Shown here: piece by piece, positions 249-34,093 of the stretch | How positions within the stretch are numbered: the first letter of the stretch is position 1 | How the letters are laid out: every line of letters starts with the position of its first letter | Assembly: GCF_000818195.1 (NCBI RefSeq) | Contig: NZ_JTHL01000001.1 | Span: forward strand, 4,379,654-4,418,597 | From: Streptomyces sp. 150FB | Lineage (GTDB): Bacteria; Actinomycetota; Actinomycetes; Streptomycetales; Streptomycetaceae | DNA length: 38,944 nucleotides | Direction: 5' to 3' | Translations under genes and position numbers: made by a program | Notes under the pieces: model-generated | The model's database searches: none | What the model saw: only the letters and a program-made list of their open reading frames with translations | Told to the model about the DNA's origin: nothing

Positions 249-2654
<2,406 letters not shown>

Positions 2655-8793: not shown

Positions 8794-8878
8794 GGTAGCG
8801 TGTCCGAGCGGCCGAAGGAGCTCGCCTCGAAAGCGAGTGTGGGGAAACTCACCGAGGGTTCAAATCCCTCCGCTACCG
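8794..8878 (+). tRNA. tRNA-Ser(CGA)
   Basis: An 85-nt class II tRNA. The acceptor is GGTAGCG/CGCTACC with discriminator G73. The anticodon stem CTCGC/GCGAG bears the loop CTCGAAA (anticodon CGA, reading UCG). A long variable arm TGTGGGGAAACTCACC and a T-arm with loop TTCAAAT follow. CCA is not encoded. It is the intact translational tRNA against which the two anticodon-less tRNA-like genes further right can be compared. Confidence 0.96.
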
Positions 8879-16002: not shown

Positions 16003-16046
16003 TCTCAGGGCCGTCTCAGCGAAATCTCAGTCGCGACCGGCAGAAT
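16003..16046 (+). promoter_or_regulatory. SARP-type promoter of tRNA-like RNA 1
   Basis: Three exact TCTCAG hexamers start at 16003, 16014 and 16025 (11-bp steps, one helical turn). They are followed by 10 bp and the -10-like CAGAAT at 16041-16046. SARP activators are known to bind direct heptad repeats at 11-bp spacing just upstream of -10. The same layout, including the 10-bp gap, recurs on the other strand before tRNA-like RNA 2. The predicted transcript starts about 40 nt before the RNA. Confidence 0.8.
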
Positions 16047-16091: not shown

Positions 16092-16178
16092 GGAGAGGTA
16101 CCCGAAGCGGCCCAACGGGGTTCCGAGGCAACTCGGACCGGGTGAAAGCCCTCGCAGGTTCGAATCCTGCCCTCTCCG
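16092..16178 (+). ncRNA. Anticodon-less tRNA-Ser-like RNA, copy 1
   Basis: An 87-nt RNA with full tRNA architecture except the anticodon. The acceptor is GGAGAGG/CCTCTCC with unpaired G73, then U8 A9. A 4-bp D-stem CCCG/CGGG has an 11-nt loop containing G18G19. The T-arm is GCAGG-TTCGAAT-CCTGC. In place of the 17-nt anticodon arm is a 16-nt hairpin TCCGAG-GCAA-CTCGGA with a GNRA tetraloop. The long variable arm is GGGT-GAAA-GCCC. G1-C72, G2-C71, A3-U70, C11-G24, G73 and a long variable arm are serine-identity features. Folding it with a 7-nt anticodon loop forces a C-C mismatch. It is 92% identical to copy 2. CCA is not encoded directly after G73. Confidence 0.85.
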
Positions 16179-16329: not shown

Positions 16330-17709
16330 TCACGGGGTACGGCGGGCCTCCCGGTCCAAGCTGTTCAGGTACGCCCGCAGCAGCCCCCTCGCCGGGCGCG
16401 CGGTGAGCGGGACCAGGGGGGCACGGTCGCGGTGCCAGGGGTAGCCGCCGGGGCCGACGCCGCCACGGGTCGCCGGCGGGCCCTCGACGAGGGACTCGGC
16501 GACATGCGATCCGTGGGCCACCGACATGGCCAGGCCATGACCGCAGCAGCCGCCGATGTACCAGATGTCCGGGTGCCCCCCGACGTGCCCGACCACCGGA
16601 AGGTCGTCCATGGTCATGCCGATCTGCCCCGACCAGCGGTGGCTGACCGGGACTTCGGCGACGCTGGGATGCAGCAGCCGCAGCCGCTCCTCCAGCCACG
16701 CCCAGGTCGCGGTGCTCAGCTCGGCGGCCCGGCCGGGGCTCAGCCCCGGGAGATGTACGGCCCTACCGCCACCCACCACCAGGCGTCCGTCGTGGGTGAG
16801 GCGGAAGTACGGCGCCAGGGACATGGTGTTGACGACGGCGGTGCCGGTGGCGCCCCCCAACGCGGCGCGGGCCTCGGCGCCGAGCGGGGCGGTGGCGACG
16901 GCGTGCACCTGAAGCGGCAGGACCGTGCCGACGGGCAGCCCGAGCTGCCCGGCCGCCGCGTTGACGGCGAGGACCGTCTTGCGGGCGCGGAGCGTACCGC
17001 TGGGGAAGAGCAGTTCGGTGGGTGCGGCGCCGCCGCCGGGGCCCAGACCGCGCAGGGGGCTGTCGTCGTAGAAGCGGACCCCCTTCGCGGCACAGGCCGC
17101 TGCCAGCGCGCCGCTCAGCGCGGCCGGGTCGAGGGTCGCGGCGCTGCGGTAGAGCAGACCCGCGTGGTACGGAACGTCGACACGCTCGCGGATGGCCGCG
17201 GCCGACAGCACGGGGACGTCCAGACCGAGCGCCCGGTAGGTCTCCGCCTGCCGCGCGAGCGACGCCAGGCCGGGCCCGCCGCGCGTCGCCACGATCTGCT
17301 CCCCGGTGCGCAGCCCGCACGGTGCGCCCAACTCCTCGGTGAGCGCGACCACCCGCTCCACCGCGGTGACGGAGGCGAGATACATGCGCCGCGCCATGGA
17401 CGGGCCGAAGCGGCGGGCCGCCCGGTCGATCGCCGGACCCACCCGGGGTCCGAGCAGGCCGGTGCCCCGGCCGCTGGCGCCGGCCGCCGGATGCCGGGCG
17501 TCCACGACGACGACATCCAGCGAAGGATCGCGTTCGATCAGGTGGTAGGCGGTGGACAGGCCGGCGAGTCCGGCCCCGACCACCGCGACATCGGCGGTGA
17601 GCCCGCCGGAGATCCGCGCCGCGGGGGCGCCGTCGGCGGCCCCGCCGTGGGCGTTACGCGAGGGGGCGCCGGGTGCCCAGCACGGCTCCTCCCCGACCTG
17701 GGCCGTCAC
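16330..17709 (-). CDS. FAD-dependent oxidoreductase (DAO/amine-oxidase-like family)
   Basis: A 459-residue flavoprotein. Near residues 34-60 it has a Rossmann dinucleotide motif, VAVVGAGLAGLSTAYHL, followed by VVVVDA. The C-terminal FAD/substrate motif is IGMTMDDLPVVGHVGGHPDIWYIGG in part, ending CCGHGLAMS, as in glycine oxidase/sarcosine oxidase relatives. These enzymes oxidise C-N bonds using O2. In this cluster an N-containing intermediate (amine, hydrazine or amino acid moiety) is a reasonable substrate, but that is inference. The GTG start overlaps the flavin reductase stop (GTGA). It is the last gene of the leftward operon and faces tRNA-like RNA 1. Confidence 0.85.
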   Translation of the reverse strand: MTAQVGEEPCWAPGAPSRNAHGGAADGAPAARISGGLTADVAVVGAGLAGLSTAYHLIERDPSLDVVVVDARHPAAGASGRGTGLLGPRVGPAIDRAARRFGPSMARRMYLASVTAVERVVALTEELGAPCGLRTGEQIVATRGGPGLASLARQAETYRALGLDVPVLSAAAIRERVDVPYHAGLLYRSAATLDPAALSGALAAACAAKGVRFYDDSPLRGLGPGGGAAPTELLFPSGTLRARKTVLAVNAAAGQLGLPVGTVLPLQVHAVATAPLGAEARAALGGATGTAVVNTMSLAPYFRLTHDGRLVVGGGRAVHLPGLSPGRAAELSTATWAWLEERLRLLHPSVAEVPVSHRWSGQIGMTMDDLPVVGHVGGHPDIWYIGGCCGHGLAMSVAHGSHVAESLVEGPPATRGGVGPGGYPWHRDRAPLVPLTARPARGLLRAYLNSLDREARRTP

Positions 17710-18317: not shown

Positions 18318-18833
18318 CTACCGCCCGGACTCCAGGGAGTCCCGCAGCGCGACGAGCGTCGTGCGCATGGTCGCCCTGTTGCGGGTCCTGCGGCGTACGA
18401 CGCCGGTCACCAGCGGGGTGACAGCGGTGAGCGCCATGCCCAGCGGGCCGGCCCTGCGGTCCCGCCACTCCTCCCGCACCTCGCACCCCTCCGGCAGCGC
18501 CGAGAAGCGGTACGTCCAGCCCGCCACCTGGATACCGAGGAAGCTCACATGGAACGTGAAGGCGCGGCCGGGATCGGCCTCGATCACCCGGCACAGGGTG
18601 GGCCACGGCAGCCAGCGGGCGCGGTTGCGCCCGACGAACCGCATGCCCTTCCTGGCGGGGCCGCCCCGTCCGACGATCCACGCGCCACGGCACTCGGGGC
18701 TCCACTCGCCCATCCGTGCCACGTCGCTGACGGCCGCGTAGGCGGTCTCCGGAGGGACCCGGATGACGATGCTCTCGGATATCCGTGAGGGGGTGCCGGG
18801 TTCACCCGCCATCTCGGCGGTCTGGTCGGTCAC
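18318..18833 (-). CDS. SRPBCC (START-like) family protein
   Basis: A 171-residue protein starting with GTG that overlaps the MMPL stop. SRPBCC features are ISESIVIRVPPETAYAAVSDVARMGEWSPECRG, then a beta-rich core (FTFHVSFLGIQVAGWTYRF) and a long C-terminal helix. Such helix-grip proteins bind hydrophobic ligands in a deep pocket and act as cyclases, aromatases or binding proteins. There are no catalytic residues I can assign. It may hold or shape a lipid intermediate. It is a second, unrelated-looking SRPBCC protein next to the one at 26984. Confidence 0.82.
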   Translation of the reverse strand: MTDQTAEMAGEPGTPSRISESIVIRVPPETAYAAVSDVARMGEWSPECRGAWIVGRGGPARKGMRFVGRNRARWLPWPTLCRVIEADPGRAFTFHVSFLGIQVAGWTYRFSALPEGCEVREEWRDRRAGPLGMALTAVTPLVTGVVRRRTRNRATMRTTLVALRDSLESGR

Positions 18834-21295
18834 TGGGTGCCCGTCCTTTCCATGCTGTCCGTACGTTCGGGTGGTACGGGTCCGGTTGAGTCGGCCGTGC
18901 CGGCGTCAACGGCCGCACGGTCCGCCGCGAGGGTGGGGGCGGACGCGCTTCTCCGGCCCGGCAGCCACCAGTTGACCCTGCTCATCAGGCGCATCGACGC
19001 CGGGACGATCAGGAGCCGGATGACCGTCGCGTCGAGCGCGATGGCCACCGCCATGCCGAGGCCCAGTTGCTGGATCGGCAGGATGCCGGTGAAGGCGAAG
19101 GCCGTGAAGACCGCCACCATGAGGACGGCCGCGCCGGAGATCAGCGGCATCGTGGCTGACATGCCGCGCACCACGCTGCCGATGTCGTCCCCGGTGGCGA
19201 CGTAGTCCTCGCGCACCCGGCTGAGCAGGAAGACCTCGTAGTCCGTGCTGAGGCTGAACAGCAGCGTGACCAGCAGGACGGGGACGAAGTTGGTGAGGTG
19301 CCCGTCCACGTCGAAGCCGAACAGCCCGCTCCCCAGGCCGTCCTGGAAGACCAGCACCAGCACGCCGTAGGTGGCGCCCACGGAGAGCAGGTTCATCGCG
19401 ATCGCCTTCAGCGGCAGGAACACCGAGCGGAAGGTGAGGAGCAGCAGCAGGTAGATGACGGCGAGCATGGTCCCGATGACCGGCACCAGACCGTCCTCGA
19501 TGACCTTGTTGGCGTCGACGCCCTCGGCGGTCTCCCCGCCGACGTCGACGATCCACCCCGCGCCGCCGGCCGTGAACGCCGCCGCCTCGGCGCGTACGGA
19601 GGTGAGCAGGGCCCGCGCCGCTTCGGAGGAGGCGGTGTCGTCGCCCACCACCTCGATCAGCGCGGTCCTGCCGTCGCCGGAGACGAAGAAGTCGACGGTG
19701 GCGCGCGCGTCCCCGGGCAGCCGGTCCCGCGCCGCCAGAGCCGCGAACGGCCGCTCCCGGTCGGCCTGGCTGAGCGTGCCGACCGCCGAGTCGGCCCGTA
19801 CCACCCCGGGCAGGGCGCCCACCGCGTCGTGGAAGCGCAGCAGGTGGGCGATGTCCGCGTCGGAGCGCTCCTCGAGCGGTACGCGCGACGCGACGACCAC
19901 CTGGAGCGGCGCGGCGCCGCCCACCCCGAACTCGTCCCTGACCGCGTCGTACCCCTGGCGTACCGCCGCGTCGGCGGACACGACCCTGGCGTCCGGGGTG
20001 AAGGTCTCCAGGCGCAGGGCGGGCAGGGCGAGGGCGGCCGGCGCGGCGACGCCGACCACCAGGAACAGCGCGGGGCGGCGCATGACCGTCCGGGTCAGGG
20101 TGACCCAGCCGCCGCCGGTCCTCGCGGTGTCCGGCCGCCGGCGGCCGATCCGGCCCCACTCGATCCTGGGGCCCAGCAGGCGCAGCAGTACGGGGAGCAG
20201 CAGCACGCTGGTCAGGACGGAGAAGGCGACCACGACCACGGCGCCCAGGGCCATCGACCGGATGACGTCCAGGTCCACCAGGAAGAGCGTGGACATGGCG
20301 GCGACGATGGTCAGGCCGGAGGCCACGACGGTCACGCCCGAGGTGCGCAGCGTCCGGGTGAGGGCGCGCTCGCTGTCCGCCCGGAAGCCCGTCCCTTCCC
20401 CGGCCCGCAGCTCGCTCCTGAACCGCGTGATCATGAAGAGCGAGTAGTCCACGCCCACGCCGAGCCCGAGCATGGTGGCGGCGTTCTGCACGAACACCGA
20501 CAGTTCGGTACGCCGGGCGACGAGGGTGAGCACAGCGAGCGCGAGGACCACCGAGGTGACGCCGACCAGCAGGGCGGCGAGCGCGGCGGCCACGCTGCGG
20601 AAGAGCAGCAGGAGCACCAGGAGGATCAGCGGCAGGGTGACCAGTTCGGCCATGATCAGCCCGCGTTCGCTGAGGTGGTTCACCTCGCCCCACAGCGCGG
20701 CCTGGCTCACCAGGGAGACCTGGAGGCCCGCCGGCCCGTACTGCCTGCTGAGCCGGTCCTGGATGCCGGGCAGCAGCCGGCGCGCTGTGCCGTCGTCCAG
20801 TTCGGAGCCGACGCGGACCAGCGCGGTACGCCGGTCCTCGCCGAGGAAGGCGGCGCGCGGCCGTTCCCCGGTGAGCGTGGTGTAGCCGTACCCGCCGGTG
20901 GCCTTGAGGTCTCCGTCGTGGAGCACGGCCTCGGCCGCTCCCCGTACGCGGGTGTCGAAGGCGGGATCGCCGGCCCGGTGCCGGGTGTCCCTGATCACCA
21001 GGGTCAGTGAGGTCGCGCCGCGCCCCTCGAAGCCGTCGGTGAGCCGCGCCGCGGCGACGGCGGAGCCGGAGCCCGGTACGAGCCACCCGCCACCGCTGAG
21101 CAGGCCCGGCAGCGAGGCGGCCTGCCAGCCGGCGACGCCGAGCAGCAGCAGCCACAGGACGGCGAGCGGCCAGCGGAGACGGCCGGTCAGACGGGACAGG
21201 CCGGCCGGTAACCGGGACTCCCGGCGGCCCGGAGGCCGCTTCGGGAGCGCCGGCCCTGCGGGGGGCCCGCTCGACGGGGCGCGACGCTCGCTCAT
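18830..21295 (-). CDS. MMPL/RND-family lipid transporter
   Basis: An 821-residue inner-membrane transporter. Its topology is the actinobacterial MmpL type: one helix (WPLAVLWLLLLGVAGWQ), a periplasmic domain, a five-helix bundle, a second helix (LFLVVGVAAPAALALPAL), a second periplasmic domain and a second bundle. Proton-relay-like motifs LGLGVGVDYSLFMITRFR and SLSTDYEVFLLSRVRE contain the paired Asp-Tyr residues of the family. MmpL proteins export lipids and lipid-like natural products, so this is the likely product exporter or self-resistance pump. Its ATG overlaps the stop of the CrtC-like gene and its stop overlaps the SRPBCC gene. Confidence 0.92.
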   Translation of the reverse strand: MSERRAPSSGPPAGPALPKRPPGRRESRLPAGLSRLTGRLRWPLAVLWLLLLGVAGWQAASLPGLLSGGGWLVPGSGSAVAAARLTDGFEGRGATSLTLVIRDTRHRAGDPAFDTRVRGAAEAVLHDGDLKATGGYGYTTLTGERPRAAFLGEDRRTALVRVGSELDDGTARRLLPGIQDRLSRQYGPAGLQVSLVSQAALWGEVNHLSERGLIMAELVTLPLILLVLLLLFRSVAAALAALLVGVTSVVLALAVLTLVARRTELSVFVQNAATMLGLGVGVDYSLFMITRFRSELRAGEGTGFRADSERALTRTLRTSGVTVVASGLTIVAAMSTLFLVDLDVIRSMALGAVVVVAFSVLTSVLLLPVLLRLLGPRIEWGRIGRRRPDTARTGGGWVTLTRTVMRRPALFLVVGVAAPAALALPALRLETFTPDARVVSADAAVRQGYDAVRDEFGVGGAAPLQVVVASRVPLEERSDADIAHLLRFHDAVGALPGVVRADSAVGTLSQADRERPFAALAARDRLPGDARATVDFFVSGDGRTALIEVVGDDTASSEAARALLTSVRAEAAAFTAGGAGWIVDVGGETAEGVDANKVIEDGLVPVIGTMLAVIYLLLLLTFRSVFLPLKAIAMNLLSVGATYGVLVLVFQDGLGSGLFGFDVDGHLTNFVPVLLVTLLFSLSTDYEVFLLSRVREDYVATGDDIGSVVRGMSATMPLISGAAVLMVAVFTAFAFTGILPIQQLGLGMAVAIALDATVIRLLIVPASMRLMSRVNWWLPGRRSASAPTLAADRAAVDAGTADSTGPVPPERTDSMERTGTQ

Positions 21296-22311
21296 GCGCG
21301 GATCGCGATTCCGTGTTCGCGGTCGTCGGTCAGGATCTCCATCAGCGCGCGGTTGGACGTGGTGAGCCGCTGGACCGTGCGCGTCGCCTTGTTGAGGATC
21401 TCCAGCTCACACCGGCCGATCTTGGTGTTCAGGCAGTGCTTGATCCCACCGGGAGGGTTGTAGTAGTTGAGCCCCACGAAGTCCTCGGGGGCCGCGGTGA
21501 AGCGGCCCCGGACGGCGACGGACTCGTCGGAGCTGGCGAAGTCCCAGTAGAAGTACCCGAAGTCGGCCTTGGCCTTGAGCCCTTGGCGGAGGGCGGTCAG
21601 GGAGTACTCGCGGTCGTCGTGCCGGAGCACCAGGAACGTGAGCTTGGGCGTCTTGACCGGACCGGCCAGCCTCGTCGTGGCGGTGATGATCTCCAGGAAG
21701 CTGTCCGGGTGCTCGTCGAACCCGGCCACCTGGCCGAAGGCGTAGTGATCGGTGTGCCGGCTGCCCCAGTTGTGGTTCTGGCTGCCGGTCCAGCCGTCGA
21801 CGTCGACCGTCTCGCCGTCGACCGTGAGCTTGCCGCTGTACGTGGCGAGCGGGACCCCGACCAGGCTCTTGGCCTTGGGGAATCCGCCGGTGTACATCGA
21901 GGCCGGCAGCAGGAGCAGCGGCGGCTCCGAGCCCTCGTACGTCAGGTCCCAGCCGATGCGGCCGTTGGTGCCGGCCGCCTCGCCCTTCAGACTGCCCGGC
22001 TCCAGGACCCGGTCGCTCACCCGGGCGCCGAAGGAGTCGGGGTTGAAGTGGCAGTCGGAGATCGGCCACTCCTCCTTGGCCACGACGTGACGGCCGGTCG
22101 TCCCGTCGAAGTAGATGGCCCACAGTTCACCGATGGCCGCTTCGGGCATGCCGGCCGGGCTGAAGATCGTGTAGCGGATCCAGAAGGCCCTGGGCTCGGT
22201 CGGGTGGTTGCCCCGCTGGTAGAAGCTCTCGTAGTGGCCGGCTTGCTGGCCCGGACGGTACTGCGTCCAGTTCAGGCGATCCGCGTCCGCTGTGCTGGGG
22301 TCGTAGTTCAT
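21292..22311 (-). CDS. CrtC/AttH-like lipocalin-fold protein
   Basis: A 339-residue protein resembling hydroxyneurosporene synthase (CrtC)/secreted hydrolase-like proteins with a double lipocalin-type barrel. The diagnostic stretch is VDVDGWTGSQNHNWGSRHTDHYAFGQ, near residues 175-200. Earlier segments are FWIRYTIFSP and ISDCHFNPDSFG. CrtC adds water across a polyene double bond, while other members act in tailoring of natural products, so the reaction cannot be named. There is no obvious signal peptide. It lies between P450 (48-bp gap) and the MMPL transporter (overlap), arguing for a tailoring step on a lipid chain. Confidence 0.8.
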   Translation of the reverse strand: MNYDPSTADADRLNWTQYRPGQQAGHYESFYQRGNHPTEPRAFWIRYTIFSPAGMPEAAIGELWAIYFDGTTGRHVVAKEEWPISDCHFNPDSFGARVSDRVLEPGSLKGEAAGTNGRIGWDLTYEGSEPPLLLLPASMYTGGFPKAKSLVGVPLATYSGKLTVDGETVDVDGWTGSQNHNWGSRHTDHYAFGQVAGFDEHPDSFLEIITATTRLAGPVKTPKLTFLVLRHDDREYSLTALRQGLKAKADFGYFYWDFASSDESVAVRGRFTAAPEDFVGLNYYNPPGGIKHCLNTKIGRCELEILNKATRTVQRLTTSNRALMEILTDDREHGIAIRA

Positions 22312-22359
22312 CGGGTCCGTCTTTCCATCCGATACCGGTACTGGTTCTGCTGTGACGTC

Positions 22360-24709: not shown

Positions 24710-24796
24710 CGGAGAGGGCAGGATTCGAACCTGCGGGGGCTTGCGCCCGATCCGGGTTGCCCCGGAACCCCGTTGGACCGCTTCGGGTACCTCTCC
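24710..24796 (-). ncRNA. Anticodon-less tRNA-Ser-like RNA, copy 2
   Basis: An 87-nt partner of copy 1. The acceptor stem, G73, D-stem, G18G19 and T-arm are identical. The hairpin at the anticodon position is TCCGGG-GCAA-CCCGGA, so an A-U pair of copy 1 is G-C here (both bases changed). The variable arm is GGGC-GCAA-GCCC, so the G-U pair of copy 1 is G-C and its GAAA loop is GCAA, still GNRA. No anticodon can be read. CCA is not encoded (CCG follows G73). It lies about 65 nt after a SARP-type repeat array and before the methyltransferase gene, so it may also form the leader of that operon. Confidence 0.85.
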
Positions 24797-24844: not shown

Positions 24845-24888
24845 ATACTGCCGCAGCGTTCTGAGATCACGCTGAGATCCCCCTGAGA
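24845..24888 (-). promoter_or_regulatory. SARP-type promoter of tRNA-like RNA 2 and the tailoring operon
   Basis: Read on the minus strand, three exact TCTCAG repeats occupy 24888-24883, 24877-24872 and 24866-24861 (11-bp steps). Ten base pairs later comes CAGTAT (24850-24845), a -10-like hexamer. Spacing is the same as at the first tRNA-like gene. The array lies just beyond the ketosynthase stop. Confidence 0.8.
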
Positions 24889-26492: not shown

Positions 26493-26984
26493 TCATCGGT
26501 GTGACGGTTCGGGGCGCGCGGCGGAGGCGGCGGGCGCGGCCGGCGCCGCGTCGAACTGGCCGGTGAAACGGGAGTACGCGGGGTGCGCGACCGGTTCGAA
26601 GTCCAGCGCGAACGGCTTGAGGAAGTTGCCGAACAGCGCGCGGTCGCCGAAGAGATGGATGGGGACGACCAGCAGCGCCCACTCGGGGCCCCACAGCCAG
26701 ATCCACGCGAGCACGACGAGCGTCTGGGTGGCCAGGCTGTGCATCACGTTGTACGCGACGTAGTAGCCGCGGTGGATCCGCTTGGTCTTGCTGCGGTGGT
26801 AGGCGATGGCGCCGGGGATGTAGCCGATGAGGTCGATGTACACGAAAAGACCGACGGCGGGGAGCCATCTGACCTCGCCGATGTGGACGAGGAAGTAGAC
26901 GGCGGCGATCACCAGACCGAGCCCGTACTCCAGCCGGATCAGCCGGTAGGTGGTCCGCGTCTCGAAGAGGTTCTTCCCGTCCAT
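26493..26984 (-). CDS. Four-helix membrane protein of unknown function
   Basis: A 163-residue integral membrane protein with about four helices: LGLVIAAVYFLVHI, WLPAVGLFVYIDLIGYIPGA, MHSLATQTLVVLAWIWLWG and WALLVVPIHLFGD. His residues cluster at helix ends (AYHRSKTKRIHRGYYVAYNVMH in part, and PIHLF), which might hint at a metal centre, but I see no established His-box pattern. The tail is Ala/Pro-rich. It overlaps the SRPBCC gene (ATGA) and precedes ACP by 23 bp. I do not recognise the family. A membrane-bound tailoring or scaffolding role is only a guess from context. Confidence 0.8.
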   Translation of the reverse strand: MDGKNLFETRTTYRLIRLEYGLGLVIAAVYFLVHIGEVRWLPAVGLFVYIDLIGYIPGAIAYHRSKTKRIHRGYYVAYNVMHSLATQTLVVLAWIWLWGPEWALLVVPIHLFGDRALFGNFLKPFALDFEPVAHPAYSRFTGQFDAAPAAPAASAARPEPSHR

Positions 26985-27499
26985 CAGCGCGCTCCCGAGG
27001 TGGCGACGACGGGCTCGGCCGTCAGTTCGGCGACGGCGCGGGCGACCGCCTCGTCGCCGACCACGGAGGCGTTGCCGGCGAAGAGGCTGATGACGACGCG
27101 GGCGATGGTCTCCTTGAAGACCCGCTCGGCGACCGGGTCGAGGATGCCCGCGAGGCTGGGGATGCCGAAGTCGAACTCGGCGCTGAAGTCGACCAGGCAG
27201 TCCCGGCCGTCGGCGGTGAGCCGCCAGACGCCGTTGAACTCGGCGAAGTCGCCGTCGATCTGCTCGAAGGTGATGGTCAGGGCGTCCCGGTCGAACAGGT
27301 CGGTCTCGCTCCAGCTCAGGATGCCGTTGCGGAAGTAGACGTCCCAGTCGCTGGCCTCCTCCTCGGCCGACACCTGACGGGTCGTCACCGAGCGGATGAC
27401 GTCGGACAGTTCGGCGTACCGGTTGAAGGCGCCGACCCGATCGAATGCCGCCGCCGCCTCGATGTCGTGGACTCGGATGGTCACATGAGCGCTACGCAT
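26984..27499 (-). CDS. SRPBCC/polyketide-cyclase-like protein
   Basis: A 171-residue protein with the helix-grip pattern of the COQ10/RatA branch: AAAAFDRVGAFNRYAELSDVIRSV, then strands (SWSETDLFDRDALTITFEQIDG, FNGVWRLTADG, CLVDFSAEFDFGIP in separate parts) and a long C-terminal helix (VAERVFKETIARVVISLFAG). Members bind lipid tails or catalyse cyclisation. It overlaps the aminotransferase stop by 8 bp and the membrane-protein start by 1 bp, so it is tightly coupled. It could present an acyl or isoprenoid-like chain to the pathway enzymes. Confidence 0.82.
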   Translation of the reverse strand: MRSAHVTIRVHDIEAAAAFDRVGAFNRYAELSDVIRSVTTRQVSAEEEASDWDVYFRNGILSWSETDLFDRDALTITFEQIDGDFAEFNGVWRLTADGRDCLVDFSAEFDFGIPSLAGILDPVAERVFKETIARVVISLFAGNASVVGDEAVARAVAELTAEPVVATSGAR

Positions 27500-28829
27500 G
27501 GATGGTGTCGCCTTCCGCTGTGGGTGCGTAGCGGGCGCCCTGCGCGCGGCACGCGCGGTCGACCGCCTCGTAGAAGAAGTCCAGGTCCGCCCTGGTCAGA
27601 ACCGCGGGAGGGGTGAAGCGCAGGACCAGGTGCGAGTTGAGCGAGTGGTTGGCGATGACGCCGTTCATGATCAGCTCGATGAGCAGGTCGCCCGCCGGGC
27701 CGGGATCGGTGAACTCGATCCCCAGCAGCAGGCCCCGTCCCCGCACCTCGCGCACGGCGGCGCCGTAGTGCGACCGGACGATCCGGTCCAGCTCGGGGAG
27801 GATCTCGGCGCCCAGGTCGCGGGAGCGGGCCACGAGGTCGTCCTCGTGCAGCGCGGCGAGCGACCCGCGTACGGCGGCCATCGCCAGCGGCGCCCCGGAG
27901 AACGTGGACGTGTGCAGATACGGGTCCCGGTCGAAGGCGCCGAACGCCTCCCGGGTGGCGACGACGGCCGACACCGGCACGACGCCCCCGCTGAGCCCCT
28001 TGCCGACGAGCAGTATGTCGGGGGAGACGCCCTCCCGGTCCGCGCCCCACCAGGTGCCCAGCCGGCCCAGGCCGGTCTGGATCTCGTCCAGGACGAGGAG
28101 GGCCCCGTACCGGTCGCACAGGGCGCGCACCGCGCGCAGATAGCCTTCCGGCGGAATCACCACCCCGGCCTCGCCCTGCACCGGTTCGATGAAGACGCAC
28201 GACTCGCCGGGGGCCGCCGCGAGCAGGGGTTCCAGGGCGGCGGCGTCTCCGTACGGGACATGGCTGGTCTCGGGGAGCAGCGGCCGGAACGGGTCCTGGA
28301 AGACGCTCCTGCCGGTGAGGCTGAGCGCGCCCATGGTCTTGCCGTGGTAGCCGTTCTCCGTGGCGATCAGCCGGTGGCGGCCCAGGGTGCGGGCCAGCTT
28401 GATGGCCGTCTCGACCGCCTCCGCACCCGACCCCGCGAAGTGGACCCGCTCCAGCCCGGCCGGCGCCACCGACACCAGGGCGTCGGCGGCCAGGGCCGCC
28501 TGCGGTTCGAGGAAGAGCCGGGTGGCCACGGGGTGGGTGGCCAACTGCTCGGCGACGTGCCGGATGACGGTGGGGTGGCGGGCGCCGGTGAGGAAGACGC
28601 CGTAACCGCCGCAGTTCAGGAAGGTCTTGCCGTCCGATGTGGTGACCCAGGCGCCCTGCGAGGCCACCTCGATGTGTCCGCCGAACAGTTCGCCGAGCGT
28701 CGCCCGGCCCTTGCTGAGCCGGGTCCGGTACAGCTTTCCCAGCTCGGCGCGCCCGAGGACGGGCGTGAGGGTGGGGGAGATCGGGGGGACGGGCGACGGA
28801 AGAATCGGTGTCGTTGTCACGGATGTCAT
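27492..28829 (-). CDS. Class III PLP-dependent aminotransferase
   Basis: A 445-residue fold-type I, class III aminotransferase (acetylornithine/omega-amino transaminase group). The PLP lysine is Lys277 in LLVGKGLSGGVVP. The ring-nitrogen Asp248 is in VLDEIQTGLGR, and phosphate contacts are in GSGAEAVETAIKLAR. ATG 28829 (MTSVTTTP) is preferred over ATG 28835 because GAGG abuts the earlier ATG but is 6 nt from this one. This group often transfers NH2 to terminal aldehydes. With the neighbouring aldehyde-dehydrogenase-fold enzyme it is the obvious candidate for making a primary alkylamine. Confidence 0.93.
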   Translation of the reverse strand: MTSVTTTPILPSPVPPISPTLTPVLGRAELGKLYRTRLSKGRATLGELFGGHIEVASQGAWVTTSDGKTFLNCGGYGVFLTGARHPTVIRHVAEQLATHPVATRLFLEPQAALAADALVSVAPAGLERVHFAGSGAEAVETAIKLARTLGRHRLIATENGYHGKTMGALSLTGRSVFQDPFRPLLPETSHVPYGDAAALEPLLAAAPGESCVFIEPVQGEAGVVIPPEGYLRAVRALCDRYGALLVLDEIQTGLGRLGTWWGADREGVSPDILLVGKGLSGGVVPVSAVVATREAFGAFDRDPYLHTSTFSGAPLAMAAVRGSLAALHEDDLVARSRDLGAEILPELDRIVRSHYGAAVREVRGRGLLLGIEFTDPGPAGDLLIELIMNGVIANHSLNSHLVLRFTPPAVLTRADLDFFYEAVDRACRAQGARYAPTAEGDTIHA

Positions 28830-28840
28830 GGGCATCCTCG

Positions 28841-29977
28841 TCAGGTCAGACGCAGCGGGTCGCCCGCGACGTGGTCCAGGTACGGCCGGGTGAAGCTCGC
28901 CCGCGACGGCGGGTGGAAGGACAGACCGTGCGCGGCGCCGGCCAGGTAGGCCACGTCCGAGGAGGACATGAAGGTCGTGCCGCCGAGCAGTTCGACGGCC
29001 TGGTTCAGCGCGTCGCCCAGCGCGTCCTGGGCCGCGTACCGGGCGACGAGCGTGTTGGCGAGCCCCGTGTTGCCGGTCTCGCCGTCCTTGATCATGCGGG
29101 CGGTGCCCTCCAGCAGCAGGGCGGCCGTCTCCAGCCGGGTGAGCACCCGGGCGCGGTCGGAGTCGCTGCCCCGGCCGCCGTCGACGACCCGCTCGACCAG
29201 TCCGCTGACGATGCCGAGGTAGCAGGCGGAGATGAGGAGTTCGAACCAGATCAGCCCGACGGTCTGGAGGTCGTCGAGGTTCCCGGCGTCGCCCGGCTCG
29301 GTGCGCATGATGAGCTGCTCGTCGACGAAGACGTCCGTGAGCCGTACCTCGTCGCTCTCGGCCCCCGCGAGGGTGCGGCTCCCCCAGAACTGGTGGACGC
29401 TGATCCCCTCGGTCTGCCGGGGGATCAGCAGCACCGCCATCCTCGGCTCACCGCTGTCGGTCGGCAGCGCCACGCTCGCGGTGAGCAGGTCCATCGAGTG
29501 CGAGAGGCTGCACGGCTTCTTGGCACCGTTGATGACGTAGCCGCCCTCGGCCTTCGTCGCCGTCATCATCGGCGAGAGGATGCCGCGTCCCGGCCGGCCC
29601 TCGGCGAAGCCCGAGGCGACCAGCAGCCGCTGTTCCGCGATCCCTTCGAGCAGCGCCCACTCCATGCCGCTGCTCTGGATGGACTCGGCGAGGGTGAACA
29701 GGGTCGCGACCGAGAAGTGGTGCATCGTGGTGGCGATCGCCAGGGACGGCGCCCTGGAGGCCAGGGCCCGTACGACGGCGAGGGCCTGGAGCGGGTCGGC
29801 GCCCGCCCCGCCGTAGGTCTTGGGGATCACGAGGCCGGGGCCGCCGGCCTTGCGGAAGTGGTCGAGAGCGGGGTTCTTGGGCGCTTCCAGCTCTTCCAGC
29901 GGCGTGCTGGAGAGCAGGTCGAGCAGGCCGGGCAGGAATGATTCGCACGTCTCGCGTGCGGCTTCCAACGAGCGCAT
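28841..29977 (-). CDS. Acyl-CoA-dehydrogenase-fold flavoprotein, likely N-hydroxylase
   Basis: A 378-residue ACAD-superfamily protein: N-terminal helices with IPKTYGGAGADPLQALAVV, beta domain (FAEGRPGRGILSPMM, YVINGAKKPCSL) and C-terminal four-helix bundle (LETAALLLEGTARMI, ALNQAVELLGGTTFM). The catalytic Glu of true acyl-CoA dehydrogenases is not evident, as in ACAD-fold monooxygenases such as isobutylamine N-hydroxylase VlmH. Reduced flavin would come from the cluster's flavin reductase. The proposed reaction, N-hydroxylation of the amine made by the adjacent aminotransferase, is inference. ATG 29977 follows GAGGAGG. Confidence 0.85.
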   Translation of the reverse strand: MRSLEAARETCESFLPGLLDLLSSTPLEELEAPKNPALDHFRKAGGPGLVIPKTYGGAGADPLQALAVVRALASRAPSLAIATTMHHFSVATLFTLAESIQSSGMEWALLEGIAEQRLLVASGFAEGRPGRGILSPMMTATKAEGGYVINGAKKPCSLSHSMDLLTASVALPTDSGEPRMAVLLIPRQTEGISVHQFWGSRTLAGAESDEVRLTDVFVDEQLIMRTEPGDAGNLDDLQTVGLIWFELLISACYLGIVSGLVERVVDGGRGSDSDRARVLTRLETAALLLEGTARMIKDGETGNTGLANTLVARYAAQDALGDALNQAVELLGGTTFMSSSDVAYLAGAAHGLSFHPPSRASFTRPYLDHVAGDPLRLT

Positions 29978-30067: not shown

Positions 30068-31762
30068 TCAGGGCTGTCGGTGTCCGGCGGCCGCCTGAAG
30101 GGCCTTCCAGGCGCCGAACACCGCTTCGGAGGGACGCGCGCCGGCGGCGGCGACGCTCACGCCCTGGATGTGGGAGGTGCGCAGGATCGGGTAGTTGGCC
30201 TCGCCGAACACGCCTCCGGTGAGGCCGGTCCCGCCGTGGCTCGGCATGTAGGGCAGGAACCCGATGTGGGAGTCGTTCACCTTGAGCAGTCCGCCCTTGG
30301 TGATCCGGCCGACGATCCGGTCGATCACCGCGGGGTCCCGGGCCCACGCCGAGTTCCGCAGCCCGTAGGCGTTGCTGTTGACGAAGTCGATGAACCGCTC
30401 CAACAGCACCTCGTCGGGGGCGGCTTCGGCCACGATCAGCGGGAGCAGCGGGAAGAACGTCTCCTCGCGGACCGCCTGGACCTCGCGGGCATTCTCCAGC
30501 CCGCGCACCCTGACGACCGTGGGCTCCAGGAAGATCCCGGCCGTGTCGCGGGTCCCGTCCTCCTGGATCGCGTGCCCGCCGCAGACCAGCTCGGCGCCGT
30601 GGTCCAGGGCGTCGCGCAGGCACGAGAAGAACTTCTCGTTGCGCAGCACCGGGGTGAGCAGCACGCCCTCCTCCGACGACCGGCCGGGCCTGATCCGCGC
30701 GGCCCTGTCGACCAGCAGGGCCACCAGCTCGTCGGCGACGGCCGGGTGGGCCACCACCTGGTTGGGGATCATGCAGAGCTGGCCGGAGCCGTAGAAGCTC
30801 TCCGTGATGGCCTCGGCCGCCAGCTCCAGATCGGCGTCCTTCCACACCAGCACGATGTCGTTGCCGGCCAGTTCGAGGATCGGCTTCTTGCCGGCGGCGA
30901 TGCAGCGCTCCTGGAAGCGGATCCCGTTCTCGCTGCTGCCGAAGTACATGATGTCGTCGACGAACGGGCTGTCCAGCCAGGCGTCCAGCATCGGGGCCGG
31001 GTCGCCGCACACCACGCCGAGGACGCCGGGGGGAGCGCCCAGCTCGGCGAGGACCGGGGCCACGATCTCCTGAAGGACGTACATCGCGCCCAGCGGGGCG
31101 CTGCGGGGCGCCCGTACGACCAGGGAGTTGCCGGCCATGATCGCGGTCACGCCGAGCAGCGCGCTGGACAGCGGAGCGTTCTGCGGGGGGTTGAGGCAGA
31201 CGACACCGTCGGGACGGCGGCGCACGGAGATCTGCCGCTCCCCGTGCCGGTACTCCTGGAGCATCTGGCTCCGGAAGAAGCCCAGCGTCTCGGGCCCGAA
31301 GGCCTCCAGCGCCCCCGACACCTGCCAGCGGGCCAGAGCGAGCGGATGTCCTTCCTGAACGAGAACCTCGGTGATCCGCTCGGCCTGCTCGGCGATCCTG
31401 CGGCGCAGCAGGGTGCCGAACCGCTCGATCCGGGTCTCCGGGGGGAACGCGGACCAGGGGCCGACCGCGGCGGCCGCCGCCTCGACCGCCAGATCCGTGG
31501 TCCGGCGGTCCGCCCTCGCCACCCGGCCGACGATGGTGGCCGGCAGATTGTCGGCGGGGATGCGGCCGCTCTCCAGTTTCCGCTTCAGGGTGAGCGTGGA
31601 AAACGCGTCGTCGAGCAGGGCGTCCGAGTCGACCACGTAGACCCAGGACCCGCTCGGAACATTCTTTCCGTCAATGAGGGAAAGGTAGGTGGGGATTTCC
31701 GGACGAGGCGCTCCGGAATCTTCTCGTCCTGACAGTGAAGGCGTTGCGATATCGCTGCTCAC
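30068..31762 (-). CDS. Aldehyde-dehydrogenase-superfamily enzyme
   Basis: A 564-residue protein. GTG 31762 is chosen because GGAGG sits 6 nt upstream; the longer open frame would run into the promoter repeats. It has the catalytic Cys330 in SGQLCMIPNQ, the general-base Glu297 in LELAGND and the NAD-fold region NSLVVRAPRSAPLG. The Cys and Glu spacing is standard. An extended N-terminus (about 100 residues) precedes the fold. ALDH-fold enzymes either oxidise aldehydes or, as acylating reductases, release acyl thioesters as aldehydes. Before an aminotransferase, the second is the attractive reading. It is the first gene of the main operon. Confidence 0.9.
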   Translation of the reverse strand: MSSDIATPSLSGREDSGAPRPEIPTYLSLIDGKNVPSGSWVYVVDSDALLDDAFSTLTLKRKLESGRIPADNLPATIVGRVARADRRTTDLAVEAAAAAVGPWSAFPPETRIERFGTLLRRRIAEQAERITEVLVQEGHPLALARWQVSGALEAFGPETLGFFRSQMLQEYRHGERQISVRRRPDGVVCLNPPQNAPLSSALLGVTAIMAGNSLVVRAPRSAPLGAMYVLQEIVAPVLAELGAPPGVLGVVCGDPAPMLDAWLDSPFVDDIMYFGSSENGIRFQERCIAAGKKPILELAGNDIVLVWKDADLELAAEAITESFYGSGQLCMIPNQVVAHPAVADELVALLVDRAARIRPGRSSEEGVLLTPVLRNEKFFSCLRDALDHGAELVCGGHAIQEDGTRDTAGIFLEPTVVRVRGLENAREVQAVREETFFPLLPLIVAEAAPDEVLLERFIDFVNSNAYGLRNSAWARDPAVIDRIVGRITKGGLLKVNDSHIGFLPYMPSHGGTGLTGGVFGEANYPILRTSHIQGVSVAAAGARPSEAVFGAWKALQAAAGHRQP

Positions 31763-31856
31763 GCAGCCCCTCCGTTCTCCATTTCCCATCCGACGACGGG
31801 AACGTTCGTATGACCAAGTGGTGGTTACGACCATTACAGACCTCCCTGACAATCCC

Positions 31857-31895
31857 CGGAGACGGCGCTGAGACGGCACTGAGACCGCAGTGAGA
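31857..31895 (-). promoter_or_regulatory. SARP-type repeat array before the main biosynthetic operon
   Basis: Read on the minus strand: TCTCAC (31895-31890), TCTCAG (31884-31879), TCTCAG (31873-31868) and a weaker TCTCCG (31862-31857), all at 11-bp steps. The same hexamer precedes both tRNA-like RNAs. It lies in the divergent gap between the ALDH-fold gene and the transferase gene, so it may serve both. I do not see the -10 hexamer at the 10-bp distance found at the other two sites. Confidence 0.7.
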
Positions 31896-31995: not shown

Positions 31996-33003
31996 ATGAC
32001 GACGCGCAGCGGAGAGGTATCCGACGAAGAAGTACTCGAAGTGCTGGAGAAACTCCGTAAGGACGGCGACAATCCCAGCGCTTTCCTCGCGCTCAACTCC
32101 GGTAACGCGTACTTCACCGATCCGTCGGTGGACGGGGTGGTCGCCTATCGCGAGGCGGGTTCGTATCTGATCCAGTTCGGCGGTGTCCACGCCCCGCCGG
32201 ATCAACAGGAGGCGCTGCTGCGGGCTTTTCTCGACCACGCGCGCCGGCGGCGCCGAAAGGTCGTCGCCATACAGGTTCTGACCGCCGACGTCGACCTCTA
32301 TGTCCGCAGTGGTTTCACGGTCAATCAGGTCGGCTCGTCGTACTCGGTGCACCTGCCGGACTTCGCCCTGCGCGGCACCCGTTTCATGAAACTCCGCAAC
32401 AAGATCTCGCGGGCCCGGCGCAGCGGTCTCGAGGTGGCGGAGGTCAGCTACGAGGAGTGCGCGGCGGAGATCGCCGGCATCGACGGCGCCTGGCTGCGGA
32501 GCAAGGGCCGCCATGTCAAGGAGATCGAGTTCCTGGTCGGCCAGTTGGGCGGACCCGTGCAGCACGCGCGCCGGCTGATGCTGGGCCGGCTCGACGGGGT
32601 GCCCATCGCCTACATCTCGTACTCGCCCGCGTACGGCTCACGCCCGGGGTGGCTGCACGACCTCAGCCGCCGGCTCCCGGACGCGCCCCCCGGTGTGATG
32701 GAGGCCATCAACCTCACCGCGCTGGAGATGTTCCGTCAGGAGGGGGCCCAGTGGCTGCACTTCGGCTTCACCCCGTTCACCGGACTGTCCGCCGAGCACG
32801 ATCCGGCCGGGGCCAGCGCGGCCACCCGTAAGATCATGCGGCTGCTGGCCGACCACGGCGACAAGGTCTATCCCGCGGCCAGCCAGCTCGCCTACAAGGA
32901 GAAGTGGGGCCCCCAGTTCGTGCTGCCCGAGTATCTGGCCTTCCACGGCCGGGCCAGGCTGGGGGCCATCTGGCAGATCCTGCGGGTCACGAAATCGGTG
33001 TGA
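31996..33003 (+). CDS. Soluble aminoacyl-tRNA-dependent transferase (LPG_synthase_C/DUF2156)
   Basis: A 335-residue protein of the phosphatidylglycerol lysyltransferase C-terminal family (tandem GNAT fold), which moves an amino acid from aminoacyl-tRNA to an acceptor. Typical parts are FMKLRNKISRARRSGLEVAEV and SPAYGSRPGWLHDLSRRLPDA, followed by GAQWLHFGFTPF and YKEKWGPQFVLPEYL. There is no membrane flippase domain, unlike MprF, so it is cytosolic. VlmA of valanimycin biosynthesis, which seryl-esterifies isobutylhydroxylamine from Ser-tRNA, belongs to this group. Here it is the obvious user of the two tRNA-Ser-like RNAs. ATG 31996 follows GGGAG. It converges on the SARP gene. Confidence 0.88.
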   Translation: MTTRSGEVSDEEVLEVLEKLRKDGDNPSAFLALNSGNAYFTDPSVDGVVAYREAGSYLIQFGGVHAPPDQQEALLRAFLDHARRRRRKVVAIQVLTADVDLYVRSGFTVNQVGSSYSVHLPDFALRGTRFMKLRNKISRARRSGLEVAEVSYEECAAEIAGIDGAWLRSKGRHVKEIEFLVGQLGGPVQHARRLMLGRLDGVPIAYISYSPAYGSRPGWLHDLSRRLPDAPPGVMEAINLTALEMFRQEGAQWLHFGFTPFTGLSAEHDPAGASAATRKIMRLLADHGDKVYPAASQLAYKEKWGPQFVLPEYLAFHGRARLGAIWQILRVTKSV

Positions 33004-33022: not shown

Positions 33023-33838
33023 TCAGGACTCCCGTCTGGTCAGATGGGGCGCCTGGCGGAGGATGTCCTGGAACGTGTCGCGCAGCTCGTGTCCGGGTTG
33101 CAGTCCTAAGTGCTGCGACAGGTACTCCCGGGTGCGGTGGTAGGTGTTGAGGGCGTCGGACTGCCGGCCTGAGCGATAGAGGGCGGTGATGAGCTGTTCA
33201 CAGAAGTGCTCGTGCAGCGGGTATCTGGCGTGCATCTGTTCCAGCTCGGGGATGATCGCCCGGGGGTGATCCAGCCGGAGGCGGAGGTCGAAGAGCCTTT
33301 CGTAGGCTCCCAGCCGGACCTCCTCCAGTTGGGTGTACGCCACCTGGCAGATCATTCCGCGCCCGGCGTCGATCAGCGCCGGGCCCCGCCACAGTGATAA
33401 CGCCTCGTTCAGCAGGTCAACGGCTCCTCTCGGGTCGCGCGCGCTCGCCTCGTCGGCGCGGGCCACCAGTTGGTGCAGCCGGGAGGCGTCGATGTCCTCC
33501 TCGGCCAGCTCCAGGACGTATCCGGTCGCCGAGGTCTGGATGACATCGCGCAGTGCGGCTTTCCCTCCGTGTGCCACCAACACCCGGCGCAGCCGGGCTA
33601 TATGGCCGTGCAGTGAATTTTCGGCGCTGTTCGGGGGCTCTTCGCCCCACAGTTCGTCGATGAGCTCGCTCCGCGAAACGGAGCGGCCCACCGACAGCGA
33701 GAGAGCCGCCAGGATCGAGCGTAGTTTTTCGCCGGGTATCCGGACCTGAATGCCGTCGTCGGTTACTTCCATCGGTCCGAGAAGATTGATCCGCAATTGA
33801 GGTCCGTTGCCTTGTTGATGTGAGCGAGGAGTGGACAC
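33023..33838 (-). CDS. SARP-family transcriptional activator
   Basis: A 271-residue Streptomyces antibiotic regulatory protein. An OmpR-type winged helix (about residues 12-105; LRINLLGPMEVTDDG, SRSELIDELWGEEPPNSAENSL in part, ATGYVLEL) is followed by a bacterial transcriptional activation domain (about 112-255; LEEVRLGAYERLFDLRL, LHEHFCEQLITALYRSGRQ, ALNTYHRTREYLSQHLGLQPG in parts). GTG 33838 has an AAGG site 8 nt upstream. Leu147 is encoded by TTA at 33400-33398, making translation dependent on the bldA tRNA. The TCTCAG repeats at the three cluster promoters are its likely targets. It ends 19 bp from the transferase stop. Confidence 0.95.
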   Translation of the reverse strand: MSTPRSHQQGNGPQLRINLLGPMEVTDDGIQVRIPGEKLRSILAALSLSVGRSVSRSELIDELWGEEPPNSAENSLHGHIARLRRVLVAHGGKAALRDVIQTSATGYVLELAEEDIDASRLHQLVARADEASARDPRGAVDLLNEALSLWRGPALIDAGRGMICQVAYTQLEEVRLGAYERLFDLRLRLDHPRAIIPELEQMHARYPLHEHFCEQLITALYRSGRQSDALNTYHRTREYLSQHLGLQPGHELRDTFQDILRQAPHLTRRES

Positions 33839-34093
33839 ATGGAACGCCTTCTCTCGGGGAGAGCGCCCCTGTGCGGGTGTCACCGTCCACCCGGGACGGT
33901 GCGTGCGTGAACACCGTTGCGGGCCCGGATCCACGACGAGATCACTCCGGGACCCGCCTGCTTCTGCCGCTGACCTGATCACTGTGCGACTGCTGCGGCG
34001 CGACGGGAGCGACGTCGGCGGCTGCGACGGCGCGGTTACGGGTCGTACGCATAAGAATCAGATTCCGTTTCGGGAAGGTGATGAGCGGTGTGG

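What the first reader, a model, noticed from the sequence alone, without database searches (positions are those of the whole stretch)
16092..16178. tRNA-Ser-like RNA with a GNRA hairpin instead of an anticodon
Seen: an 87-nt gene with acceptor stem, G73, D-arm with G18G19, canonical T-arm and long variable arm. The anticodon arm is replaced by a 6-bp hairpin with a GCAA tetraloop; no 7-nt loop can be folded without a C-C mismatch. Known: seryl-tRNA synthetase reads the long variable arm, acceptor end and discriminator and does not contact the anticodon. Inference: the RNA could be serylated yet never decode, which makes it a dedicated amino-acid donor for biosynthesis. I know of no described Streptomyces cluster with such an RNA.
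Basis: partly seen in the sequence, partly recalled or inferred. Interest (0 to 1): 0.95.

Follow-up and report, generated by a model that had tools for sequence, protein, structure and literature searches.

The report
Anticodon-less serine tRNA for natural products
Some Streptomyces gene clusters predicted to make azoxy compounds carry genes for a serine-tRNA-shaped RNA whose decoding arm is a plain hairpin, and this RNA is likely loaded with serine only to feed the cluster's own transfer enzyme rather than the ribosome, which would explain how these cells set aside an amino acid for making the compound.

Summary
16092-16178(+) and a second copy, 24710-24796(-), fold as tRNA-Ser-like RNAs (G73, long variable arm) whose anticodon arm is a 6-bp GCAA hairpin. 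Neighbours identify an azoxy cluster: VlmA-, VlmH-, VlmR- and VlmO-like genes and a SARP regulator. The RNA is a family: acceptor stem, T-arm and G73 nearly invariant, anticodon arm hypervariable. Of 120 distinct members, 3 can form a 5-bp/7-nt arm in the normal register (control: 4 of 4 ordinary tRNA-Ser). In 392 Streptomyces genomes all 51 RNA-positive ones have a VlmA-type gene; none of 310 VlmA-negative ones has the RNA. A class-wide sample adds 4 of 4. Nine of nine plasmids matching the RNA carry VlmA. A valanimycin-like plasmid cluster with its own seryl-tRNA synthetase has two copies. Triple TCTCAG repeats with an 11-bp period (SARP type) occur at three places in the window: before both RNAs and before a biosynthetic gene run. 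One VlmA clade lacks the RNA where searched. Most likely the RNA is a dedicated serine donor for VlmA that never decodes. Transcription, charging and use by VlmA are untested. I found no description in the open-access library searched.

The parts
16092..16178 (+). tRNA-Ser-like RNA, copy 1; anticodon arm is a 6-bp GCAA hairpin
24710..24796 (-). tRNA-Ser-like RNA, copy 2 (80 of 87 bases identical to copy 1)
16003..16030 (+). triple TCTCAG direct repeat, 11-bp period (SARP-type operator), 61 nt upstream of copy 1
   Evidence: 0 mismatches; 5 matches in all, 0.01 expected
24861..24888 (-). triple TCTCAG direct repeat, 11-bp period, 64 nt upstream of copy 2
   Evidence: 0 mismatches
31846..31895 (-). 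run of 11-bp-period TCTCAG-type repeats (1-2 mismatches) in front of the aldehyde dehydrogenase/VlmH-like/aminotransferase gene run; overlaps the listed ORF start, so the true start codon probably lies downstream
31996..33003 (+). VlmA-like aminoacyl-tRNA-dependent transferase (LPG_synthase_C / DUF2156); predicted user of the RNA
28841..29977 (-). VlmH-like acyl-CoA-dehydrogenase-family protein (predicted amine N-hydroxylase)
   Evidence: role by comparison with PMC9379638
17706..18251 (-). VlmR-like flavin reductase
27492..28835 (-). class III aminotransferase (predicted to make the fatty amine)
30068..31879 (-). aldehyde dehydrogenase-family protein (Ady2-like role predicted)
26493..26984 (-). 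VlmO-like protein: D51, H82, H110 and D114 all present (also in 111 of 111 matched loci, some of them the same record twice)
33023..33982 (-). SARP-family regulator (BTAD + Trans_reg_C)
8794..8878 (+). ordinary tRNA-Ser(CGA), used as comparison; not part of the system

Best explanation
The RNAs at 16092-16178 and 24710-24796 belong to a family of tRNA-Ser-shaped RNAs whose anticodon arm is a variable hairpin and which, in the genomes sampled, occurs only together with a VlmA-type aminoacyl-tRNA transferase gene; each is likely charged with serine by seryl-tRNA synthetase and used only as the serine donor for VlmA in azoxy biosynthesis. Shown here: the predicted structure, the family, its linkage to VlmA, and shared SARP-type repeats before both RNAs and a biosynthetic gene run. 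Inferred: (1) SARP-driven transcription and end processing to a CCA-ended RNA; (2) charging by SerRS, which in other species reads the variable arm and G73 and not the anticodon; the single host SerRS would serve in this genome, a private SerRS in some relatives; (3) no decoding, because no usable anticodon loop exists; (4) transfer of serine by VlmA to the hydroxylamine made by the aminotransferase and VlmH/VlmR-like enzymes, followed by VlmO-type N-N bond formation. The RNA would thus separate the pathway's serine supply from translation.
For: Co-occurrence: in 392 Streptomyces genomes the RNA (model R1; members at 72.3 bits or more, next match 62.5) is in 51, and all 51 have a VlmA-type match; 0 of the 310 genomes without one have the RNA. 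In 394 genomes across the class, 5 of 5 RNA-positive genomes have VlmA, 4 of them new. Nine of 72,556 plasmid records match the RNA by BLASTN; all 9 are among the 13 VlmA-positive ones, and R1 finds it in 2 more of the 13. Linkage: 43 of 51 genomes have RNA and VlmA on one contig, 24 within 500 bp, 42 within 30 kb. Relaxed anticodon arm: 3 of 120 allow 5 bp + 7 nt in register, control 4 of 4 tRNA-Ser. Kept body: G73 and C48 in 120 of 120, T-stem GCAGG/CCTGC in 114 of 120 (partly built into the search pattern); helices covary (78 double-change cells; 0 of 500 shuffles). Serine: paralogous SerRS in 8 RNA-positive loci, 7 of them distinct, and in two RNA-positive plasmid clusters; in none of 20 RNA-negative VlmA loci. 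A valanimycin-like plasmid cluster carries two RNAs; VlmA of that pathway uses Ser-tRNA (passages). Regulation.
Against: No transcript, CCA addition, charging or VlmA assay is available. VlmA does not need this RNA everywhere: a supported clade of 32 of 80 named VlmA proteins lacks it where looked for (6 whole genomes, 26 flanks only); 21 of 72 genomes with a VlmA-like gene in the genus sample and 4 of 9 in the class sample have none; and the literature passages describe VlmA with Ser-tRNA-Ser. 34 of the 40 first-set loci, and this window, show no SerRS gene in the stretch read. Some genomes carry 6 to 11 copies scattered far from VlmA, which the donor model explains only as gene dosage. A regulatory role of the RNA is not excluded.
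Confidence: 0.85

Rival explanations
1. The RNA is a regulatory tRNA mimic: it binds SerRS, VlmA or another factor, charged or not, and tunes the pathway rather than donating serine.
For: SARP-type repeats tie it to the pathway; scattered copies far from VlmA; a B. cereus pseudo-tRNA that does not function in translation affects phenotype (PMC3399842, start of abstract in the listing).
Against: G73 and the acceptor stem are kept, which points to use of the 3' end; among the loci examined a paralogous SerRS sits only in RNA-positive ones; the hairpin loop, a likely place for target pairing, varies between relatives.
Confidence: 0.08
2. It is an unusual decoding tRNA-Ser (suppressor or recoding) that serves the cluster's mRNAs.
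For: ARAGORN assigns assorted anticodons to relatives; 6 of 120 can form some 5-bp/7-nt arm with U33 when register shifts of 0-2 are allowed.
Against: The assigned anticodons range over Ala, Arg, Cys, Glu, His, Lys, Pro, Sec, Thr and Trp; 3 of 120 allow a normal arm in register; all four ordinary tRNA-Ser are present in this genome.
Confidence: 0.02
3. It is tRNA debris: an attachment-site remnant or mobile pseudogene carried along with the cluster.
For: tRNA genes are common integration sites (abstract start of PMC3399842); tandem and scattered copies exist.
Against: Near-invariant acceptor and T arms while the aligned VlmA proteins are 46-80% identical to the window's; compensatory changes; upstream repeats; no match in 50,697 phage records at E <= 1e-5.
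Confidence: 0.03
4. It is a donor RNA as proposed but charged with another amino acid or used by another transferase of the cluster.
For: The azodyrecin paper proposes alanyl-tRNA as the donor for a VlmA homologue (PMC9379638 passages).
Against: G73 with a long variable arm is serine identity (PMC9976931 passages); the extra synthetase found beside it is SerRS (other synthetases were not searched for); SerRS, VlmA and RNA sit together in a valanimycin-like cluster.
Confidence: 0.06

Closest known systems
Ordinary tRNA-Ser (Rfam RF00005)
   Same: acceptor stem, D arm, long variable arm, T arm, G73
   Different: no 7-nt anticodon loop; anticodon arm hypervariable between relatives; borderline Rfam score for copy 1 (32.0 against a gathering score of 29)
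Non-proteinogenic tRNA-Gly of Staphylococcus aureus (cell-wall glycine donors; passages of PMC4052509)
   Same: tRNA set aside for a non-ribosomal transferase; A51-U63 in the T stem, one of the pair changes linked there to weak EF-Tu binding, is shared by this family, while all four ordinary tRNA-Ser of this genome have G51-C63
   Different: those are tRNA-Gly isoacceptors and serve peptidoglycan, and have lost G18G19; this family lacks the anticodon loop, is linked to a metabolite cluster and keeps G18 (47 of 47 rows) and G19 (90% or more)
Valanimycin VlmA/VlmL pathway (PMC4052509, PMC12945691, PMC11705231; passages)
   Same: VlmA-type transferase uses Ser-tRNA; extra SerRS in the cluster; SARP regulator (title of a reference seen)
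   Different: no dedicated tRNA is mentioned in the passages read; PMC4052509 says how Ser-tRNA is diverted from translation is unknown
tmRNA and plant-virus tRNA-like structures (recalled)
   Same: aminoacylated RNAs without a decoding anticodon
   Different: different structure and function; not amino-acid donors for a small molecule
tRNA-Other of Bacillus cereus (PMC3399842, start of abstract only)
   Same: pseudo-tRNA that does not function in translation
   Different: single pseudo-tRNA beside a genomic island; no link to a metabolite transferase in what I saw

Membership tests
Decoding tRNA-Ser | tRNA body with long variable arm and G73 | tested here: met
   (G73 in 120 of 120)
Decoding tRNA-Ser | 5-bp stem and 7-nt anticodon loop with U33 | tested here: not met
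   neither window copy; 3 of 120 relatives allow the arm in register; control 4 of 4
Serine-accepting RNA | serine identity elements (variable arm, G73) | tested here: met
   identity rules from passages of PMC9976931
Serine-accepting RNA | charged by SerRS in vitro or in vivo | not testable with these tools
   no experiment available
Non-proteinogenic tRNA (S. aureus tRNA-Gly type) | tRNA-Gly isoacceptor | tested here: not met
   serine-type body, long variable arm, no anticodon loop
Non-proteinogenic tRNA (S. aureus tRNA-Gly type) | T-stem changes linked to weak EF-Tu binding (A49-U65 and A51-U63) | tested here: inconclusive
   A51-U63 present in 47 of 47 aligned rows, 49-65 is G-C in 45 and G-U in 2; EF-Tu binding not measured
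VlmA-type azoxy cluster | VlmA-like aminoacyl-tRNA transferase | tested here: met
   similarity and family only, no sequence of the characterised VlmA was compared
VlmA-type azoxy cluster | VlmH/VlmR-like N-hydroxylase pair and VlmO-like enzyme | tested here: met
   by family; by residues D51, H82, H110, D114:
VlmA-type azoxy cluster | VlmB-like oxygenase | not tested
   annotated in relatives L296, L297 and L300; not identified in this window
SARP-regulated genes | direct repeats with 11-bp period at the promoter | tested here: met
   11-bp rule from PMC5930380 passages; binding not tested

The most novel reading that the evidence does not exclude
Azoxy gene clusters run a private, translation-free aminoacylation line: a SARP-controlled tRNA-Ser that has discarded its anticodon, in some clusters with its own seryl-tRNA synthetase, delivers serine to VlmA, and some genomes amplify the RNA to eleven or more scattered copies in step with the pathway. 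It would be a class of tRNA that exists only to supply a small-molecule pathway.
Probability: 0.7. Interest if true: 0.95.

Novelty: categorically new. Interest (0 to 1): 0.92.

Why it matters
[quoted passage not shown] A dedicated, non-decoding serine RNA next to VlmA would be a direct and testable answer, and it is present in a valanimycin-like cluster and beside a VlmA-like gene in Streptomyces atratus, the species named for elaiomycin. It would also show that a tRNA gene can leave the genetic code altogether and be kept for metabolism, give a genome-mining handle for this group of clusters, and offer an anticodon-free tRNA/SerRS pair for engineering.

Tried and rejected
Rejected readings: chance hairpin (family, covariation and linkage); ordinary tRNA with a wrong register; phage-borne element (no match in 50,697 phage records); relation to the Mycobacterium sRNA Ms_IGR-2 or the Deinococcus Y RNA (17.4 and 21.8 bits against gathering scores of 45 and 80).

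Expectation that failed: I expected an extra SerRS to replace the RNA in RNA-negative clusters. The opposite was seen: among the loci examined, SerRS paralogues lie only in RNA-positive ones. Scattered copies have no neighbour gene common to all, judged by eye from my own ORF calls for 23 copies in 5 genomes. An early motif idea, GTCAG...GTGANCGG, covers only 37 of 130 upstream stretches and was replaced by the 11-nt repeats.

Limits of counts. The 120 distinct RNAs were found with a text pattern that allows up to 3 mismatches in the 5' part and 3 in the 3' part, so conservation of those parts is partly built in; R1 searches do not share that limit, but R1 was trained on such sequences. Loop size by energy (3 nt in 17, 4 in 63, 5 in 33, 6 in 5, 7 in 1, 10 in 1 of 120) is a weaker test than the register test: by energy one of the four control tRNA-Ser also shows a 3-nt loop. 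In the anticodon-arm helices 82.4% and 75.0% of cells pair, fewer than elsewhere, and the measure 'further pair types' is reached by 20 of 500 shuffles. In one search, 381 of 392 genomes have some R1 match at E <= 0.01; those at 62.5 bits or less are presumed to be ordinary tRNA-Ser and were not inspected. At most 11 candidates per genome were scored there, so G365 and G327 (11 members each) are lower bounds. VlmA-RNA distances use part of the RNA coordinates, so they are upper bounds. Ten of the 82 VlmA matches (304-327 bits) I set apart as MprF-like; they count as VlmA-positive in the 310 figure and as neither in '21 of 72'. The script stopped at row 41 of 47; the analysis was redone on 120. 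In the tree 27 of the 35 RNA-negative labels rest on about 10 kb of flank (less where the contig ended) and 8 on whole genomes; the RNA of L177's genome lies by the second VlmA of that species (L224). Of 21 RNA-negative genomes with a VlmA-like gene, 20 were read around VlmA (G337 and the second VlmA of G086 were not fetched).

Full report
WHAT IS THERE. The 87-nt sequence at 16092-16178 is as described. It folds into an acceptor stem, D arm, hairpin UCCGAG-GCAA-CUCGGA, a short variable-arm hairpin and a T arm, and Infernal aligns it end to end with the tRNA model at 32.0 bits. A second copy lies at 24710-24796 on the minus strand. The two agree at 80 of 87 positions; two of the seven differences form one compensatory A-U to G-C change inside the hairpin. 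Searches of the window's own genome find these two and no third member, four ordinary tRNA-Ser genes, and one SerRS above the family cut-off.

WHERE IT SITS. Around the RNAs are genes for a VlmA-like aminoacyl-tRNA-dependent transferase, a VlmH-like flavoenzyme, a VlmR-like flavin reductase, a class III aminotransferase and an aldehyde dehydrogenase-family protein, and a SARP regulator. The protein at 26493-26984 matches DUF4260 only weakly (E 0.081), as the azodyrecin paper reports for Ady6, but has D51, H82, H110 and D114, the four essential residues reported for VlmO (PMC11705231 passages); 111 of 111 matched loci keep all four, some of them the same record twice. This set is the aliphatic azoxy gene set described in PMC9379638 (passages), except that I did not identify a VlmB-like gene in the window. 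VlmA of the valanimycin pathway transfers serine from Ser-tRNA to an alkyl hydroxylamine (passages of PMC12945691, PMC4052509 and PMC11705231).

A FAMILY, NOT A ONE-OFF. BLASTN of copy 1 in 392 Streptomyces genomes gave 67 genomes with a match, part of them short matches. From the fetched loci I aligned 47 distinct full-length RNAs and built a covariance model, R1. Acceptor stem and T arm are almost invariant, and 11 of 26 pairs show changes on both sides (78 cells; 0 of 500 shuffles reach this). All six pairs given for the anticodon-arm hairpin show changes on both sides, though 18-25% of cells there do not pair because the arm differs so much in sequence, length and loop. Over the loci held there are 120 distinct sequences: G73 in 120, an encoded CCA in 17, and a 5-bp/7-nt arm in the normal register possible in 3. 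The same register test passes 4 of 4 ordinary tRNA-Ser of this genome. This is the reverse of a decoding tRNA: what is needed for folding and charging is kept, the decoding loop is not.

WHO HAS IT. With R1, 51 of 392 Streptomyces genomes have members at 72.3 bits or more; the next match is 62.5 bits. A VlmA search of the same 392 genomes gives 82 with a match: 72 VlmA-like ones (in two of them the match comes in two pieces) and 10 weaker matches, mostly in longer reading frames, that look MprF-like. All 51 RNA-positive genomes are among the 72; 21 of the 72 lack the RNA; none of the 310 genomes without a match has it. In 394 genomes across the class, 5 carry the RNA and all 5 are among the 9 with VlmA; one of the five is the window's genome and one is from another family. 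Among 72,556 plasmid records, 9 match the RNA by BLASTN and all 9 are among the 13 with VlmA; some of these plasmids are also in the genus sample. R1 finds the RNA in two more of the 13 (L296, L297) and not in the 31-kb stretches read from Paraburkholderia and Embleya.

LINKAGE. In 43 of the 51 genomes RNA and VlmA share a contig; in 24 they lie within 500 bp, in 39 within 15 kb and in 42 within 30 kb. Of 80 named VlmA loci, 24 have the RNA within the fetched stretch. Of 29 whole genomes whose fetched stretch had none, 21 have it elsewhere (which also re-found it in L217's genome). On the VlmA tree the RNA label needs 4 changes against 26.2 in shuffles (0 of 500). The RNA-negative loci are one supported clade of 32 plus three single rows: a metagenome bin (L182), one whose genome was not held (L170), and one draft genome without it (L231). 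One RNA-positive row is Microbispora, outside Streptomycetaceae. Streptomyces atratus, the species named for elaiomycin in PMC11705231, has the RNA about 120 bp from VlmA (L217, strain JCM 3386). S. rochei NRRL B-2410, of the species that makes KA57-A, is in the RNA-negative clade.

A PRIVATE SYNTHETASE. Paralogous SerRS genes, 34-39% identical to the host enzyme, lie in 6 of 40 first-set loci and in 2 of the 80 named loci, all RNA-positive; one locus is in both sets, so 7 are distinct. The four tested score above the family cut-off; one was aligned with solved SerRS over nearly its whole length. None lies in the 20 RNA-negative VlmA loci read. The plasmid of Streptomyces sp. NBC_00212 (L297) carries a VlmB-like gene, flavin reductase, acyl-CoA dehydrogenase-family gene, VlmA-like gene, pyridoxal-dependent decarboxylase, ilv genes, serS, MmgE/PrpD and diacylglycerol-kinase-family genes and a SARP, in my reading a valanimycin-type cluster (gene roles partly recalled), and has two tandem RNAs beside the SARP. 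Plasmid pSA3239 (L300) has serS, VlmA and the RNA.

REGULATION. TCTCAG repeated three times with an 11-bp period, allowing 3 mismatches, matches five times in the window, at three places: before copy 1, before copy 2 (both perfect), and before the aldehyde dehydrogenase/VlmH-like/aminotransferase gene run; 0.01 matches are expected by chance. Eleven-bp units are the classical SARP binding sequence (PMC5930380 passages). Upstream of 131 RNA copies, triple repeats occur in 51% at a period of 11 and in 0-2% at periods 8-10 and 12-15; 1500 random stretches of the fetched loci give 1.5% at period 11. So RNA genes, including many scattered ones, look like members of the SARP regulon.

HOW IT LIKELY WORKS. 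The RNA would be transcribed with the pathway, charged by SerRS (serine identity rests on the variable arm and G73, not the anticodon; PMC9976931 passages), ignored by the ribosome, and discharged by VlmA onto the hydroxylamine. Two T-stem features fit escape from EF-Tu but prove nothing: A51-U63, a change seen in non-proteinogenic tRNA-Gly (PMC4052509 passages), where all four ordinary tRNA-Ser here have G51-C63; and C50-G64, an EF-Tu antideterminant pair of tRNA-Sec (PMC9976931 passages). Transcription, charging and transfer are inference.

WHAT DOES NOT FIT YET. One VlmA clade manages without the RNA; it may use ordinary tRNA or another amino acid. Some genomes have 6 to 11 copies scattered around the genome (members listed: G365 11, G327 11, G003 10, G282 9, G033 8, G388 8, G258 6; G784 11, G768 6, G776 6), between genes with no family common to all in the 23 copies looked at. 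34 of the 40 first-set loci show no SerRS in the stretch read.

LITERATURE. Word searches of the open-access PMC library found no description of such an RNA; subscription papers and preprints are not held, and the primary valanimycin papers could not be read. I therefore call it new with that reservation. By the membership tests it is neither a decoding tRNA nor a tRNA-Gly of the staphylococcal kind, though it would work like a set-aside tRNA.

Noticed in passing
G365 and G327 (11 members each), G003 (10), G282 (9), G033 and G388 (8 each), G258 (6); G784 (Kitasatospora mediocidica, 11), G776 and G768 (6 each): Some genomes carry many scattered copies of the RNA, mostly far from VlmA and between unrelated genes, several with GTCAG-type 11-nt repeats upstream. 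Counts are lower bounds where 11 was reached.
   Followed up: partly
   Followed up: partly
L114-L133 and the clade L181, L183, L186-L210, L212, L213, L218, L219, L229: A large VlmA clade whose clusters mostly carry a DAO-family oxidase and mostly lack a SARP hit in the stretch read also lacks the RNA; its amino-acid donor is open.
   Followed up: partly
L057 15365-15581, L058 9814-10154, L059 2835-3176, L078 9861-10136, L230 4422-4762: Tandem arrays of two or three RNA genes with periods of about 96-125 nt.
   Followed up: no
L298 15001-15966 (Paraburkholderia phymatum plasmid pBPHY01): A VlmA-like protein (46% identical) outside Actinomycetota, without the RNA in the 31 kb read.
   Followed up: no
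window 16330-17709, 18830-21295, 21292-23826: DAO-family oxidase, MMPL transporter, P450 and a protein without Pfam match between the two RNAs; similar genes lie near the RNA in close relatives. Product unknown.
   Followed up: no
window 249-2597: Terpene synthase with two Terpene_syn_C_2 stretches, probably a geosmin-type synthase (recalled); unrelated to the RNA.
   Followed up: no
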